Assembly: GCA_023548195.1 (NCBI GenBank)
Contig: JAJHZJ010000694.1
Span: forward strand, 3,874,501 to 3,938,500
DNA: 64,000 nt
Source of the DNA: Bettongia penicillata ogilbyi
Lineage: Eukaryota > Chordata > Mammalia > Diprotodontia > Potoroidae
Reading direction: 5' to 3'
How positions within the stretch are numbered: the stretch's first letter is position 1; the number at the start of each line of letters is the position of its first letter. This document shows positions 11,688-64,000 of this stretch, piece after piece. A program made the translations under genes and the position numbers. Below the pieces are notes generated by a model. That model had not been told where the DNA came from. It made no database searches and worked only from the letters and a program-made list of their open reading frames with translations.

Positions 11688-13661
11688 TTTTTTTTAATAT
11701 AAATTTGCTTATTTAACATTTTTTTTTGGTTTTTATCTTTTTATTTTTATTTAATTTTTTTTCTTTTTGTTTTTTTTAATGAAAATTTATTTATTTAACT
11801 TTTTACATTCATTTTCACAAAATTTTGGGTTCCAAATTTTCTCTCCATTTGTCCCCTCCGCCCACCACAATACACCGAGCATTCTAATTTCCCCTATCAC
11901 CAATCTGCCCTCTCTTCTATCATCCCTCCTTTCCCTTGTCCCCATCTTCTCTTTTGTCCTGTTGGGCCAGATAACTTTCTATTCCACATTACCTGTATTT
12001 CTTATTTCCTAGTAGCAAGAACAATACTCAACAGTTGTTCCTAAAACTTTGAATTCCAACTTCTCCCCATCCCTCCCTCCCCACCCATTCCCTTTGGGAA
12101 GGCAGACACTTCAATACAAGCCCTATCTGTATAGGTTTGCAAATGACTTCGATAATAGTTGTGCTGCATAACACTAACTGTATTTCCCTCCATCCTATCC
12201 TGCCCCCTATTGTTTCTATTCTGTCTTTTGATCCTGTCTCTCGCTGAGTGTTGACTCCAAATTGCTCCCTCCTTGCATTGCCCTCCCTTCCATCACCCCC
12301 TCCCACCCTGCTTATCTCCTTCTCCCCCACTTTCCTGTATTGTAAGATAGGTTTTCATACCAAAATGAGTGTGCATTTTATTCCTTCCTTTAGTCAAATG
12401 TGATGAGGGTAAACTTCATGTATTTTTCCTCAGCTCTCCTCCTTTTCCCTCCACTAAAAAGTCTCCTGTTTGCCTCTTCTATGAGAGATAATTTTCCCCA
12501 TTCCATTTCTCCCTTTCTCCTCCCAATACATTTCTCTTATACATTAACCTTAATTTCTTTTAAGATATGGTCCCATCCTATTCAACTCACTCTGTGCTCT
12601 CTGTCTCTGTGTGTGCGTGCATGTGTGTATATATGTGCGCGCACGTGTACGTGTGTGTGCGTGTGTGCCTGTGTATGTGTGTGTGTGATCCCACCAACTA
12701 CCCAGATACTGAAAAGTTTTAAGAGTTACAAATATTGTCTTTCCATGTAGGAATTTAAACAGTTCACCTTTGGTAAGTCCCTTATGACTTCTCTTTGCTG
12801 TTTACTTTTTCATGATTCTTCTCACTCGTGTGTTTGAAAGTCAAATTTTCTTTTCAGCTCTGGCCTTTTCATCAAGAATGATTGAAAGTCCTCTATTTCA
12901 TTGAAAGACCATTTTTTTCCCCTGAAGTATTATACTCAGTTTTGCTGGGTAGATGACTCTTGGTTTTAGTCCTAGTTCCTTTGACTTCTGGAATATCCTA
13001 TTCCACGGCTTTCGATCCCTCAATGTAGAAGCTGCTAGATCTTTAGTTATCCTGATTTTATTTCCACAATACTGGAATTGTTTCTTTCTAGCTGCTTGCA
13101 ATATTTTCTCCTTGACTGGGGAATTCTGGAATTTGGACACAATGTTCCTAGGAGTTTCTCTTTTTGGATCTCTTTCAGGTGGTGATCGATGGATTCCTTG
13201 AATACTTATTTTGCCCTCTGGTTATAGAATCTCAGGGAAGTTTTTCTTGATAATTTCATGAAAGATGATGTCTAGGCTCTTTTTATGATCATGGCTTGCA
13301 GGTAGTCCCATAATTTTTAAATTGTCTCTCCAGGATCTATTTTCCAGGTCAGTTGTTTTACCTATGAGATATTTCACATTATCTTCCCTTTTTTTTATTC
13401 TCTTGGTTTTGTGTGGTGATTTCTTGGTCACTCAGAAAGTCATTAGCCTCCATCTGTTCCATTCTAATTTTGAGGGAACTAGTCTCTTCAGTGAGCTTTT
13501 GAACCTCTTTTTTCCATTTGGCTAATTCTTCTTTTGAAAGCTTTCTTCTCCTCATTGGCTTTTTGGACCTCTTTTGCCAATTGAGTGAGCCTATTTTTCA
13601 AGGTGTTATTATCTTCCACATTTTTTTGGGTCTCCTTTAGCAAGGTATTGACCTGTTTTCC
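11688..13661 (-). mobile_element. HAL1-A: 3' part of HAL1, distal half of a head-to-tail dimer
   Basis: Minus-strand HAL1 containing the antisense A tail (11688-11785), a complete 3' UTR with TG-rich tract, and ORF1 from the coiled coil to the stop. It begins abruptly in ORF1 at the codons just before VNTLLKETQK, where the A tail of HAL1-B joins it. It has no 5' UTR. Confidence 0.8.
12822..13661 (-). pseudogene. HAL1-A ORF1, 5'-truncated
   Basis: Covers the coiled coil (broken near 13400-13550), the RRM signature ENRSWRDNLKIMGLP (within 13222-13431) and the C-terminal domain (12898-13140 open: AKLSIILQGKK region). It stops after ...FDFQTHE at 12822-12824. It carries a TAA at the codon equivalent to Glu235 of the intact copy, shared with HAL1-B. 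Relative to the intact copy, the C-terminal part keeps the Lys, Asn and Ile residues that are Arg, Gly/Ser and Val in the hypermutated copy. Confidence 0.8.
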
Positions 13662-14685
13662 TTTTTTTTAAAAAATATACATATATTTATTTAATTTTTT
13701 ACATTCATTTTCACAAACTTTTGGGTTCCAAATTTTCTCCCTTTGTCCCCTCCCCCACCCCAATACACTGAATATTCTAATTTTCCCTATCACCAATCTG
13801 CCCTCTCTTCTATCATCCCTCCCTTCTCCTGTCCCCATCTTCTCTTTTGTCCTATAGGTCCAGATGACTTTCTATTCCCCATTAACTGTATTTCTTATTT
13901 CCTAGTAGCAAGAACAATACTAAACAATTGTTCCTAAAACTTTGAGTTCCAAATTCTCCCCATCCCTCCCTCCCCACCCATTCCCTTTGGGAAGGCAGGC
14001 AATTCAATATAGGACCTATCTGTGTAGTTTTGCCAATGACTTTGATAATAGTCGTATTGTATAAGACTAATTGTATTTCCCTCCATCCTAGCCTGCCCCC
14101 CATTGTTTGTATTCTGTCTTTTGATCTTGTCTCTCCCTGAGTGTTGACTTCAAATTGCTCCCTCCTCCCATTGCCCTCCCTTCCATCATCCCCCCCACCC
14201 TGCTTATCTCCTTCTCCCCCACTTTCCTGTATTGTAAAGTAGGTTTTCATACCAAAATGAGTGTACATTTTATTCCTTCCTTTATTCGAACGTGATGAGG
14301 GTAAACTTCATGTTTTTTCTCAGCTCTCCTCTTTTTCCCTCCACTAAAATTTCTCCTGCTTGCCTCTTGAATGAGAGATAATTTACCCCATTCCATTCAC
14401 TCTCTCTCCTCCCACTACATTTCTCTCTCACTGCTTACATTAATTTCTTTTAAGATATGGTCCCATCCTATTCAATTCACTCTGTGCTCTCTGTCTCTGT
14501 ATGTGCGTGCATGTGTGTACGTGTGTGTGCATGTGTGTATGTATGTGTGTGGTCCCACCAACTACTCAGATACTGAAACGTTTTAAGAGTTACAAATATT
14601 GTATTTCCATGTAGGAATTTAAACAGTTCACCTTTGATAAGTCCCTTATGACTTCTCTTTGCTGTTTACTTTTTCATGATTCTTC

Positions 14686-15786
14686 TCATTCTTGTGTTTG
14701 AAAGTCAAATTTTCTTTTCAGCTCTGGTCTTTTCATCAGGAATGCTTGAAAGTCCTCTGTTTCATTGAAAGATCATATTTTCCCCTGAAGTATTATACTC
14801 ATTTTTGCTGGGTAGGTGATTCTTGGTTTGAGTCCTAGTTCCTTTGGCTTCTGGAATATTCTATTCCACGCCCTTCAATCCCTTAATGTAGAAGCTGCTA
14901 GATCTTGTGTTATCCTGATTGTATTTCCACAATACTGGAATTGTTTCTTTCTAGCTGCTTCCAATATTTTCTCCTTGACCTGAGAATTCTGGAATTTGGC
15001 CACAATGTTCCTAGGAGTTTCTCTTTTTGGATCTCTTTCAGGTGGTGATCGATGGATTCCTTGAATACTTATTTTTCCCTCTGGTTATAGAATCTCAGGG
15101 CAGTTTTCCGTGACAATTTCATGAAAGATGATGTCCAGGCTCTTTTTTTGATCATGGCTTTCAGGTAGTCCCATAATTTTTAAATTGTCTCTCCAGGATC
15201 TATTTTCCAGGTCAGTTGTTTTTCCAATGAGATATTTCACATTATCTTCCCTTTTTTCATTCTTTTGGTTTTGTTTTGTGATTTCTTGGTTTCTCAGAAA
15301 GTCTTTAGCCTCCATCTGTTCCATTCTAATTTTGAGAGAACTCTTTTCTTCAGTGAGCTTTTGAACCTCTTTTTCCCTTTGGCTAATTCTTCTTTTGAAA
15401 GCATTCTTCTCCTCATTGGCTTTTTGAACCTCTATTGCCAATTGAGTGAGCCTATTTTTCAAGATGTCATTTTCTTCCACCTTTTTTTGGGTCTCCTTTA
15501 GCAAAGTATTGACCCATTTTTCATGCTTTTGTTGCATCTCTCTCATTTCTCTTCCCAATTTTTCCTCCACCTGTCTAACTTGATTTTCCAAATCCTTTCT
15601 GAACTCTTCCATGGCCTGAGCCCATTGGATATCTATTTCAGATGTTTGGGATACAGAGGCCTTGGCTTCTATGTCTTTCCCTGATGGTAAGCATTGTTCT
15701 TCCTCGTCAGAAAGGAAAGGAGGAAATATCTGTTCACGAAGAAAGTAACCTTCTATGTTCTTATTTTTTTCCCCTTTTCTGGGCAT
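14686..15786 (-). pseudogene. HAL1-B ORF1 with premature stops
   Basis: ORF1 starts MPRKGEKNKN, with an acidic patch (SDEEEQ), then a long coiled coil (about residues 55-180, e.g. EEKLGREMREMQQKHEK) and the RRM signature ENRSWRDNLKIMGLPE. A TAA ends the open frame after 233 residues (15085). The same frame continues with L1 ORF1 C-terminal sequence and has a second stop (CGA to TGA) near 14873, reaching the natural end at 14686. RNA-binding chaperone function would require the missing C-terminal domain, so it is presumed inactive. Confidence 0.85.
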
Positions 15787-16457
15787 TTTCCCAGCCAGTT
15801 ACTTGACTTCTGAGATTCCTCTCCACCCATGCCTCACTAGCACTCACTAGTGCTTGGGGTCTGAGATTCAAATGCTGCTTCCCAGCCTCACAGCTTTCAG
15901 TGGGGTGGGGCTGATATTCAGTGCGATTAAGTTCAGATTCTCAGGTTGGGGCAGGGCTGATGCCCAGGCTCAGTTCCCTCTGGGGGTTTATGCAGAGACC
16001 TTCAACAATGGAGCCTTTGCCTGCTCCAGGAGTTTCCAGCCCACCCCCCCCCCCACACTTCCCCCTCTGCTTCCTCCCATGGGGGCCTGAGTTATGGAGA
16101 TACCCTGCTCCACTCTTGGCTGACCAGATAGGGTCTCTCACTGACCTGTAGCGCCTGTGGGTGGAGGGACCTTCGTGGCCACAAGAGATTCCGTCCCTGA
16201 ATCCTGGTCAGATTGGCTCCTCTGGGGGCCGCATGGCCAAGGCAGGTCTGGGCTCTGCTCCAGGTCTGGTGCATGGTGGACCTTTGCTGACAGTTTTTCA
16301 GGGCTCTCTGGAACAAAATTCTCCTCTGCTCCATTGCTGCATGGCTTCCACTGCTCCAGAACCCGTTGGGAGTTCTTTTTATAGGTAATTTATGGGCTGT
16401 GGGTTCGGAGCTAGCATATGTGAATCTTTTTGCTCCGCCATCTTGGCTCCTCCCCCC
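15787..16457 (-). promoter_or_regulatory. HAL1-B 5' UTR / internal promoter
   Basis: GC- and CpG-richer than its surroundings. A YY1-like core (GCCATCTTGGC on the plus strand, 16437-16447) lies within 21 bases of the 5' end, as in L1. An open frame runs on the sense strand from the 5' end (16092-16463, 123 codons) and aligns in frame with the one in the younger copy (24783-25355): SQDGG, EPTAH/KPTAH and FQRAL segments are shared. I do not know whether it is translated. Confidence 0.6.
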
Positions 16458-20714: not shown

Positions 20715-22348
20715 ATTAGTTAATTTTTAATTTTGAACATTCACTCCCACAAAATTTTGAGTTCCAGATTTTCTCCCCATCTATCCCCTCTCCTACCCCA
20801 AGATGACATGCATTCTGATTATTCCTCCCCCAATCTGCGCTCCCTTCTATCTCTCACTGCTCCTTCTCTTATCCCCTTTGTTTCTATTTTCTTGTAGGGC
20901 AAGGTAGATTTCTATACCCCATTGTGCCTTTATGTCTTATTCCCTAGCTGCATGTGAAAACAATTTTTTAAGATTCATTTTTAAAGCTTTGAGTTCCACA
21001 TTCTCTCCCTTCCCCCCAACCTTATTGAGCAAGCAACCAATTCAATATATGCAAAACACTTCCATAATAATCATGTTGTGAAAGAATAACTGTATTTCCC
21101 TCCATCCTATCCAGCCTGCCATTAATTCTGTTCTCTCCTTTGGTCCTGTCTCCCCTCAAAAGTGTTTGCTTCTGATTATCCTTCTCCTCACATTTGCCCT
21201 GCCTTCTATCATCCTCCCTTCTTGTTCCCTTCCCTGCTACTTTCCTGTAGGGCAAGCTAGCTTTTTTCATACCCAATTGAGTGTGTATGTTATTCCCTCC
21301 TTAAACCAAATTTGATGAGATGTAAGGTTCCCTCATTCCCTCTCACATCCCCCCTCTTCCCCTCCATTATAAAAGTTTTTTCTTGCCTCTTTTATGTGAG
21401 ATAATTTACCACATTCTACTTCTTCCTTTTTCTTTCTCAATACATTCCTCTTTCACCCCTTAATTTTATTTTTTAGATGTCATCCTTTCATATCCAACTT
21501 GCCTTGTGTCCTTTTTCTATACATACACACACTAACACACACATATGCCCTGTGACAAGAGTTATAAATATCATCTTTCCATGTAGGAATACAAACAGTT
21601 CAATTTTAATGAGTCCCTTTTGATTTCTCTTTCCTGTGCACTTTTTCATGATTCTCTTTATTCTTGTATTTGAAAGTTAAATTTTCTATGCAGCTCTGGT
21701 CTTTTCTTTAAGAATGCTTGAATATCCTGTATTTCATTGAATATCCATTTTTCCACTGAAATATTATACTCACTTTTGCTGGGTATGTGATTCTTGGTTT
21801 TAATTCTATCTTCTTTGACTTCTGGAATATCATATTCCAGACCCTCTGATGTCTTCTTGTAGAAACTGCTAAATCTTTTATTATCTTGGTTCCACAATGC
21901 TTGAATTGTTTCTTTCTGACTACTTGCAATATTTTCCTTTTGTCCTGGGAACTCTGGAATTTGGCTAAAATATCTCTAGGAATTTTCCTTTTGGGATCAC
22001 TTGAAGAAGATGATCAGTGGTTTTTTTCAATTTCTATTTCCTCTCTGTAATTCCAGAATATCAGGGCAGTTTTCCTTGATAATTTCTTGGAAGATAATGT
22101 CTGGGCTCTTTTTTTGCCTCATAGCTTTCAGGTAGTCCAGTTACTTTTCAGTTGTCTCTCCTGGATCTATTTTCCAAGTTACTTTTTTTTTTCAGTGAGA
22201 TATTGTTTATTGCCTTCTATTTTTTCAGTATTTTGGTTTTGTTTTATAATTTCCTGATTTCTCATAGAGTCATTAGCTTCCATTAGGTCCATTCTAATTT
22301 TTAAAGGATATTTTCTTTGGTGAACTTTTAGACCTCCTTTTCCATTTG

Positions 22349-22364
22349 GTCAATACTTCTTTTC
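22349..22364. repeat. Perfect 16-bp target-site duplication (left)
   Basis: GTCAATACTTCTTTTC is repeated exactly at 25351-25366. With the element between removed, the ORF1 reading of the host HAL1-D joins across it. Perfect identity indicates a relatively recent insertion. Confidence 0.95.
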
Positions 22365-22431
22365 TTTTTCTTTTTTTTTCCCCTTCTTTTCTTAAATATT
22401 TTTTTCTCTTTATTCATTCATTCATTTATTC

Positions 22432-22481
<50 letters not shown>

Positions 22482-22498
22482 TTATTTATTTATTTAAC
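22432..22498. repeat. (TATC)n/(TTTA)n microsatellite in the HAL1-C tail
   Basis: About a dozen TCTA units followed by TTTA units. On the element's sense strand these are GATA and AATA repeats, an expansion of the A-rich tail. HAL1-2 has a short version of the same (AATAGATAGATAAATA, near 8495-8512). Confidence 0.9.
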
Positions 22499-22509
22499 TT
22501 TTTACATTC

Positions 22510-23757
22510 ATCCTCACAAAACCTTGGGTTCCAAACTTTCTCCCCCTCCATCCCCTCTGCCCACCCCAACACCCCAAGCAATCCAATTTTCCCTATCTCC
22601 AATCTGCCCTCTCCTCCGCCATCCCTCCCCTCTCTTGTCTCCATCCTCTCCCTTCTCCTGTAGGGCCAGATGACCCTCCACTCCCCATCAACTGCATGTC
22701 CCCCTTCCCAGTAGCAACAACAATACTAAACAGTTGTTCCCAAAACCCTGAGTTCCAAATTCTCCCCATCCCTCCCTCCCCACCCACTCCCCCTGCGAAG
22801 GCAGGCAACTCAACTTAGGCCATATCTGTGCAGTCTTGCAAATGACCTCCCCGATAGTCATGTTGTGTAAGACCAACTGAATTACCCTCCATCCTAACCC
22901 ACCCCCCATCATCTCCCCTCCGCCTCTCGATCCTGTCCCTCCCCAAGTGCTGACCCCAAATTGCTCCCTCCTCCCCCCGCCCTCCCCTCCATCACCCCCC
23001 TCCTGCCCATCTCTTTCTCCCCCACTCCCCTATACTGCAAGGTAGGCCTTCACACCAAAATGCGTGTGCATCTCATTCCCTCCCCCAGCCAAATGCGATG
23101 AGGGTAAACTTCCTATTTTTTTTTCTCAGCTCTCCTCTTCCTCCCTCCACCAAAAAGTCTCCTACTTGCCTCCTAAATGACATATAACTACCCCATTCCA
23201 TTTCACCCTCCCCCCTCCCACCACATCTCTCCCCCACCATCCACCCCAATCTCTTCCAAGACATGGTCCCATCCCACTCAACCCAATCTGTGCTCTCCGT
23301 CTCTGCATGTGCGTGCACGTGTGTATGTGTGCATGCGTGTACATGTGTGTGTATGGACCCACCAACCACCCAGACACTGAAAAGCTCCAAGAGCCACAAA
23401 CACTGTCTTTCCATGTAGGAATGCAAACAGTCCACTTCCGGCAAGTCCCCCAAGACCTCTCCCCGCTGTCCACCCCTCCATGCCCCTCTCTCACTCCTGC
23501 ACCTGAAAGTCAAACCTTCCCCTCAGCTCTGGTCCCCCCATCAAGAATGATTGAAAGTCCTCCATTTCACCGAAAGACCACATTTCCCCCCGAAGTACCA
23601 CACTCAGTTTAGCTGGGTAGGCGATTCCTGGCCTGAGTCCCAGTTCCCCCGACCTCTGGAACACCCCACTCCACGCCCTTCGATCCCCCAATGCAGAAGC
23701 CGCTAGATCCCGAGCCATCCCGATCCTACCTCCACAACAATGGAATTGCCTCTCTCT
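22510..23757 (-). other. Sense-strand A-to-G hypermutated tract in HAL1-C
   Basis: Against the aligned copies HAL1-A and HAL1-B, this tract differs chiefly by plus-strand T-to-C (sense A-to-G). Hand comparison of 23506-23766 with 14701-14960 gives about 49 T-to-C, 0 C-to-T, 1 A-to-G and about 9 other changes. In the next 260 bases (from 23767) T-to-C falls to about one. The tract starts after the microsatellite tail and ends sharply near codon 280 of ORF1. It covers the whole 3' UTR proper plus the last 88 or so codons. In protein this appears as Lys to Arg/Gly/Glu, Asn to Gly, Ile to Val/Met, Thr to Ala and Tyr to Cys. Confidence 0.85.
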
Positions 23758-24594
23758 AGCTGCTTGTAAGATTTTCTCCTTGACCTGGGAGTTCTGGAAT
23801 TTGGCCACAATGTTCCTAGGAGTTTCTCTTTTTGGATCTCTTTCAGGTGGTGATCGATGGATTCTTTCAATACTTATTTTGCCCTCTGGTTCTAGAATGT
23901 CAGGGCAGTTTTCCTCGATAATTTCATGGAAGATGATGTCTAGGCTCTTTTTTTGATCATGACTTTCAGGTAGTCCCATAATTTTTAAATTGTCTCTCCT
24001 GGATCTATTTTCCAGGTCAGTTGTTTTTCCCATGAGATATTTCACATTCTCTTCCATTTTTTCATTCTTTTGGTTTTGTTTGGTGATTTCTTGGTTTCTC
24101 GTAAAGTCATTAGACTCCATCTGTTCCATTCTAATTTTGAGAGAACTATTAAATTCAGTGAGCTTTTGAACCTCTTTTTCCATTTGGGTAATTCTGCTTT
24201 TGAAAGCATTCTTCTCCTCATTGGCTTTTTGAACCTCTTTTGCCAATTGAGTGAGCCTATTTTTCAAGGTGTTATTTTCTTCAGTATTTTTTTGGGTCTC
24301 CTTTACCAAGGTATTGACCTGTTTTTCATACTTTTCTTGCATCTCTCTCATTTCTCTTCCCAGCTTTTCCTCCACCTGTCCAACTTGCTTTTCAAAATCC
24401 TTTTTGAGCTCTTCCAAGGCCTGAGCCCACCCAACATCCCCCTGGGATGTCTGGGGTATTGAAGCCCTGCCCTCCACATCTTTCTCTGATGGCAAGAATA
24501 TGTCCTCGTCCTCGTCAGATCCAAAAGTCGGGATCATTTGCATCTGTTTGAAAAAACTCTCTGTAGTCGTATTTTTCTTCCCTTTTCTAGGCAT
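23491..24594 (-). CDS. HAL1-C ORF1 protein (L1 ORF1p-like RNA-binding protein), intact frame
   Basis: A 367-residue L1 ORF1-type protein, known in L1 as a trimeric RNA-binding and nucleic-acid chaperone that packages the element RNA in cytoplasmic particles. Residues 1-50 are polar with an acidic patch (GSDEDED, 25-31). About 55-185 forms heptad-rich coiled coil. The RRM signature ENRSRRDNLKIMGLPE lies at 195-210. The C-terminal domain spans about 255-355, with the conserved PRNIVAKF (259-266) and YPAKLS (326-331) segments. The ATG is the first in frame and matches the start of HAL1-B. The stop follows FDFQVQE. Residues 280-367 are altered by A-to-G changes and many conserved basic or asparagine positions are replaced, so binding activity is doubtful although the frame is open. 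There is no ORF2 downstream, so mobility would need L1 enzyme in trans. Confidence 0.85.
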   Translation of the reverse strand: MPRKGKKNTTTESFFKQMQMIPTFGSDEDEDIFLPSEKDVEGRASIPQTSQGDVGWAQALEELKKDFEKQVGQVEEKLGREMREMQEKYEKQVNTLVKETQKNTEENNTLKNRLTQLAKEVQKANEEKNAFKSRITQMEKEVQKLTEFNSSLKIRMEQMESNDFTRNQEITKQNQKNEKMEENVKYLMGKTTDLENRSRRDNLKIMGLPESHDQKKSLDIIFHEIIEENCPDILEPEGKISIERIHRSPPERDPKRETPRNIVAKFQNSQVKEKILQAARERQFHCCGGRIGMARDLAASALGDRRAWSGVFQRSGELGLRPGIAYPAKLSVVLRGEMWSFGEMEDFQSFLMGGPELRGRFDFQVQE

Positions 24595-25350
24595 TTTCCC
24601 AGCCAGTTACTTGACTTCTGAGATTCCTGTCCACCCCCGCCTAGATCAGCCCAGCTAGTGCTTGGGGTCTGAGATTCAAATGGGCTTTCCACGGCAGGCG
24701 CGGCTCCTATTCAATGTGAGGTTTAGTTCTGGTGCTGGGCTGGGGGCAGGGCCACCTCCCAGGCTCAGCTTCCTCAGGGGCTTTATGCAGAGACCTTCAG
24801 TAATGGAGCGGGTGGGGCAGGGCTGTCTCCCAGGCTCAGCTCCCTCAGGGGGTTTATGCTGAGACTCTCAGTAATGAAGATCCTGCCTGCTGCTGGGGGA
24901 GTCCCGGGCCGCTGCCGCAGCTGCTGCCTCCACCGCCGCCCCCGCCTCTGCCGCCACTGCTTCCTCCTGAGGGGGCCCGAGTCACAGAGACATCCCATTC
25001 CCCTTTCGGCCAGCCAGCCGTCTCTCTCACTGACCTGTAGCTTCTGTGGGCGGAGGGAATTTCCCGGCTGCCGGAGCTTCCCTCCCTGAAGCCTGCTTGG
25101 ATCAGCTTCTCTAGGGCCACAGCCAGGGCAGCACTGGGGTGGGGTCCGCTTTCTGCAGTGCGACGGACCCTGGGGACGGCTCTCCAGGGCTCTCTGGAAC
25201 GGAAATCTCTTCCACTCTGTTTCTGCACATCTTGCAGTGATCCAGAACTTCTGGGGAACTCTTCTTACATTAAATATATGGGCTGTGGGTTTGGAGCTTG
25301 TAAATGTGCGTCTTTCTACTCCGCCATCTTGGCTCTGCCCCGCCCCCCCC
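24595..25350 (-). promoter_or_regulatory. HAL1-C 5' UTR / internal promoter, CpG-rich
   Basis: The most GC- and CpG-rich stretch in the window. A YY1-like core (GCCATCTTGGC, 25323-25333) sits at the 5' end. A GCC/CTG-type trinucleotide-rich patch (24900-24965) and a duplicated 'cagggctgtctcccaggctc'-like segment (about 24735-24775 and 24815-24855) are present. A sense open frame of 190 codons (24783-25355) overlaps almost the whole UTR and begins just outside the element. Confidence 0.65.
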
Positions 25351-25366
25351 GTCAATACTTCTTTTC
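25351..25366. repeat. Perfect 16-bp target-site duplication (right)
   Basis: GTCAATACTTCTTTTC, identical to 22349-22364. Confidence 0.95.
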
Positions 25367-26241
25367 AAGACTTTCTTTTCCTCATTGACTTTTTGAACCT
25401 TTTTTGCCATTTGGGTTAGTCTATTATTTTTTAGGTGTTATTTTCTTCAACATTTTGCCATTTACTCATTTTTCACAATTTTCCTACTTCACTCTCATTT
25501 CTCTTCCCAATTTTCCATCTACTTCTCTTACTTGATTTTCAAAATACTTTTTGAACTCTTCCATGGCCTTTGACCAATTTATACTTTTCTTGAAGGTTTT
25601 GGATGTAGGAATTTTGATTTTGTTGTCTTCTTCTTGTTGTGTTTTGATCTTCCTTCTTACCAAAGTAAGATTTTACAGTCTGATATTTTTTCTGCTGTTT
25701 TCTCATTTTCCCAGTTAATTATTTTACTTTTTAGCTCTTTGTCAAGGTAGGACTCTACTTCTAGTGTGGGGTATTTTTGTCTAAGCATTTTCAGATATGC
25801 TTCTAGGGACCTGTAAATTTTCAGTTCTCTCAAGGTGGTATGATCAAAAGGTGGGTGTTTGCTCCTCTTCTGATCTGTAGTCTTATCTGTGAGTGACCTC
25901 TAGCACTCTTTTCTGCCTTGAAACTATGAGAATTCCCTTTTCACTGCTACCACACGTTCTGCCACACCAGCTCTCCTCTTCACCCCAGGACCACCACCCA
26001 GGACTGCCACCTAGATCAAAGCATGAGCAAAGCAAGAAAATCATGACTCAGCATGAGCAAAGAGATCCTTGCATGCCTCCTCTGATCAACTGCTTGATAC
26101 CCCACCATCTGTAGAATTAGAGCTACAGAAGCAGCCACTGCTGCTGCCCAACACTGCCCTTCCTTGGAGCTGGAACCAGATGGTTATCCTCTCTCACACA
26201 AGTTCAACAGACTGTTGCTACTTCTAGAATTCTCTAAGTGT

Positions 26242-61955: not shown

Positions 61956-63122
61956 TTTTTGAGCAACTTTGGAGTGATCAGAAAGAACTAAGATCAATCC
62001 AAGAAAATTTCAGAGATATTTGAGCCCCCCAAAGAAACATTTCCTAACAAATAGAAGTATTCAACAGCAAAATGGGCTGCCTTGGGAATTAGTGAGCTCC
62101 CCTTTCCCCAACTAAAAAGTATTCGACAAAGAAATCTTCAAAACTGAATGCTCATATTAGGAATATCATAGACCAGATTCTTGATCCTATATGAGATAGA
62201 CTAGATGGCCTCTGCATATGCTGTCAGATCTGAGATTCTCTAAAGTTGTTTGTATGAGTTTTAAAAAATGGACTTTTAAAGTTGTAAAAAAATAAATCAA
62301 GGTATTGTATTGAGGGCAGGTAATGTTTTCTCCTCATATCTGATATGAACTTCAATTTATAGAAATCTAGAACTGAAAGGAAACAGGTCCTTTCATGTCT
62401 CTTACAAATTAGACCGAAGTCCCATCTCTATTGCCATTCAAGTAATTAATGAAATTTTTAAATAGCACAAAGACTGTGAGAGATCCTAGGGTTTCCATTG
62501 TAATCTTCCCATTCCTTTGAAAAGACATTGATCTGTCGATACATTCTCTGTCTATCTAGTCATTCAACCATTCAAAATCCACCTAACTACATTATCACTG
62601 ACCATCTTTCCATCTCATCCATCAGCATAACATGATAGACCTTGTCAAATGTTTTGATGAAACCCTAGAAATTTATTTTAATAGGATTCCCTTGGTCTGG
62701 GAGGAATTAGATTCTGTCTCTGACAGTCATTATGTGACTGTGGGCAGGTTAAATTCCTAAGCCTCAGTATCTCTGTCTGTCAGAAAGGAACAAGAACGCC
62801 TGTAGTATGTACCCAACAGGATTTTGGTGAAACTTAAATGAAACAACCTACAGCACTTTGCTAATTCTGCAATGCTTTTTTTAATATTAGCAATTATTGA
62901 TGTTACATTAATTATCCTGTTCACATTTCCTTGACTTCTCAGTGACAAAATTGTCACTTACCTTACATGTTCCTGATGTTTCTACTTTGGCAACTAATTT
63001 GCCAAATTTGTCAAACTTTTATTTTTAATCTTTCTCTTCTGACTCTGCTACTTTCAATTGCAGTGTTTTTTGGTTTTTTTTTAAATAACCTGTGGTCTTA
63101 AGCGTGATCATTTTTGGCATCG
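61956..63122. other. Gene-free DNA with CR1/L3 and MIR pieces
   Basis: A plus-strand CR1/L3 3' end lies at about 62055-62240 ('atgggctgccttgggaatta', 'agactagatggcctctgc'). A plus-strand MIR lies at about 62690-62875 ('tatgtgactgtgggcaggtt'). The remainder is unrecognised. Confidence 0.55.
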
Positions 63123-64000
63123 TCTTCCCCTTCCCTTCCCTTCCCTTCCCTTCCCTTCCCTTCCCTTCCCTTCCCCTTCCCTTCCCTTCCCTTCCCCTTC
63201 CCTTCCCTTCCCTTCCCTTCTCCTTCCCTTCCCTTCCCTTCCCTTCCCTTCCCTTCCCTTCCCTTCCCTTCCCTTCCCTTCCCTTCCCTTCCCCTTCCCT
63301 TCCCTTCCCTTCCCTTCCCTTCCCTTCCCCTTCCCTTCCCTTCCCTTCCCTTCCCTTCCCTTCCCTTCCCTTCCCTTCCCTTCCCTTCCCTTCCCTTCCC
63401 TTCCCTTCCCTTCCCTTCCCTTCCCTTCCCTTCCCTTCCCTTCCCTTCCCTTCCCTTCCCTTCCCTTCCCTTCCCTTCCTTCCCTTCCCTTCCCTTCCCT
63501 TCCCTTCCCTTCCCTTCCCTTCCTTCCCCTTCCCTTCCCTTCCCTTCCCTTCCCTTCCCTTCCTTCCCTTCCCTTCCCTTCCTCCTTCCCTTCCCTTCCC
63601 TTCCCTTCCCTTCCCTTCCCTTCCCTTCCCTTCCCTTCCCTTCCCCTTCCCTTCCTTCCCTTCCCTTCCCTTCCCTTCCCTTCCCTTCCCTTCCCTTCCC
63701 TTCCCTTCCCTTCCCTTCCCTTCCCTTCCCTTCCCTTCCCTTCCCTTCCCTTCCCTTCCCTTCCCTTCCCTTCCCTTCCCTTCCCTTCCCTTCCCTTCCC
63801 TTCCCTTCCCTTCCCTTCCCTTCCCTTCCCTTCCCTTCCCTTCCCTTCCCTTCCCTTCCCTTCCCTTCCCCTTCCCTTCCCTCCTCCCTTCCCTTCCCTT
63901 CCCTTCCCTTCCCTTCCCCTTCCCTTCCCTTCCTTCCCTTCCCTTCCCTTCCCTTCCCTTCCCTTCCCTTCCCTTCCCTTCCCTTCCCTTCCCTTCCCTT
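63123..64000. repeat. (TTCCC)n pentanucleotide satellite, runs off the window
   Basis: At least 878 bases of pure pyrimidine on the plus strand, almost entirely TTCCC units. Phase breaks of one or two bases (TTCCCC, TTCC, CTCC) occur for example near 63174, 63195, 63221, 63478, 63585, 63650 and 63880. It is unlike the vertebrate telomere repeat. Confidence 0.97.

What the first reader, a model, noticed from the sequence alone, without database searches (positions are those of the whole stretch)
22510..23757. Strand-asymmetric A-to-G hypermutation of a young HAL1: candidate ADAR-edited retrotransposition
Seen: relative to HAL1-A and HAL1-B, this tract carries very many sense-strand A-to-G changes and almost nothing else. 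By hand, 23506-23766 versus 14701-14960 gives about 49 plus-strand T-to-C, 0 C-to-T, 1 A-to-G and about 9 others. Known: ADAR deaminates adenosine to inosine in double-stranded RNA, read as G by reverse transcriptase. APOBEC acting on first-strand cDNA would leave sense G-to-A, the opposite direction, and GC-biased conversion would affect both strands. Inference: the RNA of this copy was hyper-edited and then inserted, leaving a DNA record of RNA editing in a marsupial LINE.
Basis: partly seen in the sequence, partly recalled or inferred. Interest (0 to 1): 0.92.

Follow-up and report, generated by a model that had tools for sequence, protein, structure and literature searches.

The report
RNA-edited LINE copies fixed in DNA
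A mobile element in this animal genome carries 184 changes of A to G, and few others, over a sharply bounded 1.24-kb stretch, in the pattern left by the RNA-editing enzyme ADAR; three other copies carry different stretches of the same kind, so edited RNA seems to have been copied back into DNA more than once.

Summary
HAL1-C (22365-25350, minus) is a full-length HAL1 insertion in an older HAL1 copy, with a perfect 16-bp target-site duplication. Against a consensus of 30 HAL1 rows, 184 of 473 sense adenosines in 22512-23754 are G; T>C is 2 of 258. Just upstream, 1 of 263 A sites is G. Edited adenosines prefer 5' T or A over C and G and a 3' G, as ADAR does; 25 background rows show no 5' preference. 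A second assembly copy of the locus has the tract. Of the 38 other HAL1 hits, three carry strong A>G tracts with other limits and their own duplications and fall apart from each other in a tree without A sites. No other row has G at more than 21% of HAL1-C's edited sites. Two more insertions share a nine-site A>G cluster, as if an edited copy had transposed again. Best explanation: ADAR edited double-stranded HAL1 RNA, which was then inserted. The duplex partner, genome-wide frequency and an unbiased T>C control remain untested; the genome search was mostly busy.

The parts
22365..25350 (-). HAL1-C, a full-length HAL1 insertion (5' end at 25350, tail at the low-coordinate side)
   Evidence: interrupts the older copy HAL1-D; flanked by a perfect 16-bp duplication
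22512..23754 (-). A>G hyperedited tract (sense strand), 184 of 473 consensus adenosines are G
23755..24350 (-). unedited stretch of the same element next to the tract, 1 of 263 or 1 of 266 A>G
22484..22511 (-). last 28 nt of the element body, unedited (0 of 17 A)
22365..22483 (-). 3' tail, sense (AAAT)n, (AGAT)n, then A-rich
22349..22364 (.). target-site duplication, copy 1 (GTCAATACTTCTTTTC)
25351..25366 (.). target-site duplication, copy 2
23491..24594 (-). open ORF1, 367 aa, L1 ORF1p type (Transposase_22, Tnp_22_dsRBD); its last 88 codons, stop included, lie in the edited tract
11785..13659 (-). HAL1-A, unedited comparison copy
13681..16455 (-). HAL1-B, unedited comparison copy
20726..22364 (-). 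HAL1-D, part of the older copy into which HAL1-C inserted; no A>G excess in 21557-22348
25351..25569 (-). HAL1-D, continuation on the other side of HAL1-C; no A>G excess

Best explanation
A HAL1 transcript was partly double-stranded, most likely paired over its 3' 1.24 kb with antisense HAL1 RNA. An ADAR deaminated about 39% of the sense adenosines in the duplex. L1 reverse transcriptase then copied the edited RNA into a new site by target-primed reverse transcription, reading inosine as G. The same happened independently to at least three other HAL1 insertions in this genome, over other stretches. Shown here: the A>G spectrum, the strand, the sharp limits, the neighbour preference, the separate insertions, their separate places in the tree. 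Inferred: ADAR as the enzyme, editing before rather than after insertion, and antisense HAL1 RNA as the partner.
For: Spectrum: A>G 184, all other changes 20, in 1236 columns. Five-prime neighbour in HAL1-C: T 43/71, A 98/171, C 23/93, G 20/136; pooled over five tracts T 106/244, A 243/670, C 46/347, G 44/475; 25 background rows are flat at 1.6-1.9%. Three-prime G, stratified by 5' neighbour: HAL1-C 61 of 135 observed edited, 50 expected, p = 0.008; five tracts 149 of 465, 114 expected, reached by 0 of 5000 permutations. Mammalian hyperediting sites show upstream-G depletion and downstream-G preference (PMC5625713, passages). Three other strong tracts: L014a 142/574, L016a 57/222, L013b 38/199, in full-length insertions with duplications of 16, 17 and 11 bp. 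With consensus-A columns removed the four edited copies sit in different parts of the tree. The flanking HAL1-D shows no excess: plus-strand T>C 20 against C>T 31, and 4 against 9. The locus is assembled twice with the same tract: 185 of 474 in L002, five differences inside the tract, colinear over the pieces fetched. Cytosines before an edited A show CpG-type decay, C>T 4/22 against 2/136 for other non-CpG cytosines, p = 0.004.
Against: No RNA data; no duplex partner identified; no ADAR gene looked for. Edited copies were found with an edited query, which favours sense A>G copies, and the planned T>C control search did not complete. Against HAL1-A and HAL1-B alone the 3' G preference of HAL1-C is absent (51/120, p = 0.44), and unstratified against the 30-row consensus it is p = 0.09. 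PMC5625713 reports the opossum, a marsupial, as falling outside the mammalian motif group, with too few sites for a good motif (passages). Edits shared between copies slightly exceed the trinucleotide expectation: 34 against 28 (p = 0.018), 34 against 29 (p = 0.043), 26 against 21 (p = 0.022), 12 against 9 (p = 0.10). The CpG decay rests on few sites, and L016a and L013b show none (0/5 and 0/2). L016a also has 25 other changes in its tract, eight of them G>A. L013b's 11-bp duplication was one of two 11-bp matches found.
Confidence: 0.92

Rival explanations
1. Deamination of DNA in place: an ADAR acting on the sense DNA strand of a DNA:RNA hybrid (R-loop) formed by antisense transcription over the inserted element.
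For: ADARs are known to act on DNA in hybrids in vitro (recalled, not looked up). Spectrum and neighbour preference would be the same.
Against: In HAL1-C the tract misses the flanks and the 3' end. The four strong tracts are all on the sense strand, although the query favoured this. A hybrid during first-strand synthesis would leave sense T>C, which is 2 of 258.
Confidence: 0.04
2. The G residues are inherited from a G-rich HAL1 subfamily.
For: L015a and L032a share nine A>G sites in 23028-23306, and HAL1-C has G at eight of them. HAL1-C shares two of the pair's eleven other states, but at these two the second assembly copy has the consensus state.
Against: After the second assembly copy the next best match to the tract is 84% identical. 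Of 44 other aligned rows none has G at more than 38 of 183 edited sites; 54 of 184 sites have G in no other row, and 111 of 184 in none of the 38 rows outside the strong and light set.
Confidence: 0.02
3. Strand-biased DNA mutagenesis (error-prone polymerase at WA motifs, transcription-associated A>G, biased conversion) or a sequencing or assembly error.
For: WA-motif polymerases share the preference for 5' A or T (recalled).
Against: A>G 184 against A>T 1 and A>C 0 in the tract; 184 of 473 inside against 1 of 263 just outside; two assembly copies agree; CpG-type decay after the change.
Confidence: 0.01
4. APOBEC editing of the first-strand cDNA.
For: It is a known cause of clustered mutation in retroelements (PMC2873906, passages).
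Against: It would leave sense G>A: 3 of 342 in the tract.
Confidence: 0.005

Closest known systems
ADAR hyperediting of repeat RNA (A-to-I in dsRNA)
   Same: Clustered A>G on one strand, 5' G depleted, 3' G favoured
   Different: There the change is in RNA and is lost with it; here it is in the genomic DNA of inserted copies
ADAR-type A-to-G clusters in retroviruses (BLV proviruses, PMC8025556 passages; two avian retroviruses, HTLV-2, STLV-3, PMC8586724 passages)
   Same: In BLV, edited RNA apparently reverse-transcribed and integrated
   Different: Those are infectious retroviruses; in BLV three proviruses had seven or more changes in about 70 bp. Here a LINE-type element in an assembled genome, 184 changes in 1.24 kb, with three further insertions
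APOBEC3 DNA editing of retroelements (PMC2873906, passages)
   Same: A permanent record of deaminase action in retroelement copies
   Different: G>A made on cDNA; here A>G, best explained by editing of RNA
HAL1 (half-L1) elements
   Same: L1-type ORF1, no L1-size ORF2, A-rich tail, target-site duplication
   Different: Ordinary member apart from the edited tract

Membership tests
ADAR hyperediting footprint | one substitution type, A>G, on one strand | tested here: met
   184 A>G, 2 T>C, 18 other changes in 22512-23754
ADAR hyperediting footprint | 5' neighbour order U/A > C > G | tested here: met
   T 43/71, A 98/171, C 23/93, G 20/136; background flat
ADAR hyperediting footprint | 3' G preferred (mammals) | tested here: met
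   stratified by 5' neighbour: HAL1-C p = 0.008, five tracts 0 of 5000 permutations; unstratified HAL1-C p = 0.09 and p = 0.44 against A and B alone
ADAR hyperediting footprint | clustered, with sharp limits | tested here: met
ADAR hyperediting footprint | double-stranded RNA substrate | not testable with these tools
   no RNA data; no partner identified
APOBEC-edited retroelement | sense G>A excess | tested here: not met
   3 of 342
L1-mobilised insertion | target-site duplication, A-rich 3' tail, L1-type nick site | tested here: met
   16 bp; nick read by me as TTTTC/AA on the bottom strand, close to the site quoted in PMC5974252 (passages)
HAL1 / L1 ORF1 element | L1 ORF1p domains | tested here: met
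   PF02994, PF17490; 2yko E = 6.8e-27
HAL1 / L1 ORF1 element | no ORF2 (reverse transcriptase) | tested here: inconclusive
   element of 2986 bp with tail; of the 8 frames of 80 aa or more overlapping 22300-25400 only the 367-aa frame was given to Pfam; none is as long as an L1 ORF2 (length recalled)
marsupial genome | species identity | not tested

The most novel reading that the evidence does not exclude
ADAR editing is a heritable mutagen of LINEs: edited RNAs are inserted repeatedly, and some lightly edited copies stay mobile and found new lineages. L015a and L032a, two insertions with different duplications and flanks, share nine A>G sites within about 280 bp, as expected if one edited copy transposed again.
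Probability: 0.35. Interest if true: 0.92.

Novelty: new variant of a known kind. Interest (0 to 1): 0.82.

Why it matters
RNA editing is normally lost when the RNA decays. Here it is written into the genome at several sites, with the enzyme's neighbour preference still readable. [quoted passage not shown] Such copies make the question testable: they record editing events, show which parts of LINE RNA were double-stranded in cells where new insertions arise, and could give a host's ADAR motif from DNA alone.

Tried and rejected
One search tabulated three minus-strand loci in the wrong orientation; it was discarded and redone. Weak HMM segments in two old copies, L025b (11/64) and L033b (15/64), were not counted as editing because those copies are diverged in all directions. 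L037 (21/430 A>G, 3/232 T>C), L034a (longest A>G run 8) and the pair L023a/L047 (8 shared A>G against 4 other shared states) are possible light cases, not counted. The HMM was run on 30 rows only; the 15 pieces (1.1-1.3 kb each) were tabulated without it. Of the 15 A>G sites shared by L015a and L032a I dropped six (24460, 23916, 23332, 23312, 23212, 22640) from the cluster because they lie outside it or occur in older or several other copies. The ORF1-part query from L014 scored 40 of 12513 candidates; after itself the best is 88% identical with a smooth decline; those hits were not cut out or tabulated. Pattern searches for edited HAL1 and a T>C control were designed but did not complete.

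Literature: ten counted searches. Nine on ADAR, A-to-G and retroelements listed no report that I recognised as A-to-G hyperedited LINE copies in a genome; some listings were capped (25 of 30, 15 of 21 and 12 of 70). I saw listings, and passages of seven papers. One search was on HAL1 in marsupials (listing). Searches timed out. The library holds open-licence papers only.

Full report
Observation. Where HAL1-A and HAL1-B agree, 172 of 448 sense adenosines in 22500-23745 are G in HAL1-C, T>C is 3 of 238, and changes other than A>G number 49 in 1136 columns; upstream in the same element A>G is 4 of 245. With a 30-row consensus the tract is 22512-23754, 184 of 473. Both limits are sharp: 0 of 40 A sites in the next 100 nt on the 5' side and 0 of 17 on the 3' side, where 15 and 9.4 would be expected.

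Anatomy. HAL1-C (22365-25350, minus) is a full-length insertion in the older copy HAL1-D, with a 16-bp perfect duplication at 22349-22364 and 25351-25366. It has an open ORF1 of 367 aa of the L1 ORF1p type whose last 88 codons, stop included, lie in the tract. HAL1-D has no A>G excess on either side.

Enzyme signature. Edited adenosines follow T or A far more often than C or G (T 45/66, A 90/162, C 22/85, G 15/122; all 14 TAA sites changed). In five pooled tracts the order is the same, and 25 background rows show none. A 3' G is favoured once the 5' neighbour is held fixed: p = 0.008 in HAL1-C, 0 of 5000 permutations in the pool; without that it is weak in HAL1-C (p = 0.09; p = 0.44 against A and B alone). 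Both fit the mammalian ADAR motif; the same paper found the opossum outside that group, with few sites (PMC5625713 passages). The pool includes the light tract of L015a, 16 of 166, whose own 5' G test is not significant (p = 0.24).

Not an error, not recent. A second contig (C845) carries the same locus at 98.75% over 4.25 kb, with five differences inside the tract, and is colinear with the window over the pieces fetched. Whether it is the other allele or a duplication was not settled. CpG-type decay has followed some edits in HAL1-C (4/22 against 2/136; with the A/B reference 6/20 against 5/60 for CA left unedited and 0/54 for C before C or T); L014a has 1/12, L016a 0/5 and L013b 0/2.

Other copies. 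One search scored 40 of 13933 candidates: the window, the C845 copy and 38 others. All 38 were tabulated (23, 15 shorter pieces). Three carry strong tracts: L014a (23254-24687 equivalents, 142/574), L016a (57/222, to 23086) and L013b (38/199, 23146-23644). L014a is edited again in its 5' part, 27/100 in 24901-25350 against 1 to 12 of 98 to 109 in 22 other rows, with 0/46 between. Each is a full-length insertion with a duplication, and with consensus-A columns removed the edited copies sit in different parts of the tree (several nodes have low support, and shared ancestry was not formally tested). Longest uninterrupted A>G runs are 39 (L014a), 31 (HAL1-C), 15 (L016a), 15 (L013b), then 12, 8, 7 and 6 in L015a, L034a, L037 and L047; runs of T>C, G>A or C>T reach at most 5 in any of 45 rows. 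The sample is not random: an edited query favours edited copies, so 3 of 38 is not a frequency.

A shared source? No other row has G at more than 38 of 183 of HAL1-C's edited sites (L016a), and 54 of 184 sites have G in no other row. L015a and L032a are separate insertions (different duplications and flanks) that share nine A>G sites in 23028-23306 which the older copies mostly have as A. L025a, near them in the tree, has none of the nine. HAL1-C has G at eight of the nine, but only two of the pair's eleven other shared states. L015a was drawn in because it resembles HAL1-C, so this overlap is partly selected; some of HAL1-C's G's may be inherited.

Mechanism. Editing of RNA before reverse transcription explains strand, spectrum, neighbour preference and limits together. 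The different limits suggest pairing with antisense HAL1 RNAs of different extents; a 5'-truncated antisense copy would explain a tract that runs from the 3' end to an internal limit, as in HAL1-C and L016a. This last step is inference.

Print. My nine ADAR and retroelement searches listed no report that I recognised as A-to-G hyperedited LINE copies. Nearest are retroviral cases (PMC8025556, PMC8586724, passages) and one endogenous mouse virus whose 5' half has an A>G excess without the ADAR context (PMC12548423, passages).

One search was run to recount.

Noticed in passing
L015 and L032: Two separate HAL1 insertions share a nine-site A>G cluster, as if a lightly edited copy had transposed again.
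   Followed up: partly
window 24459-24867 against C845: The two assembly copies of the locus differ much more densely here than in the rest of the 4.25 kb, including at two sites where the window copy agrees with L015a and L032a; conversion or an assembly effect.
   Followed up: no
L014, 24691-24900 equivalent: An unedited gap (0/46) between two edited blocks of the same copy, as if the duplex was interrupted.
   Followed up: no
L013: Two full-length HAL1 copies in opposite orientation about 1 kb apart; one is edited.
   Followed up: no
22420-22483: The tail of HAL1-C is an (AGAT)n array next to (AAAT)n; the two assembly copies differ there by a 12-base gap.
   Followed up: no
63120-63500: Long pyrimidine tandem array of about 5-base units (TTCCC) on the plus strand.
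   Followed up: no
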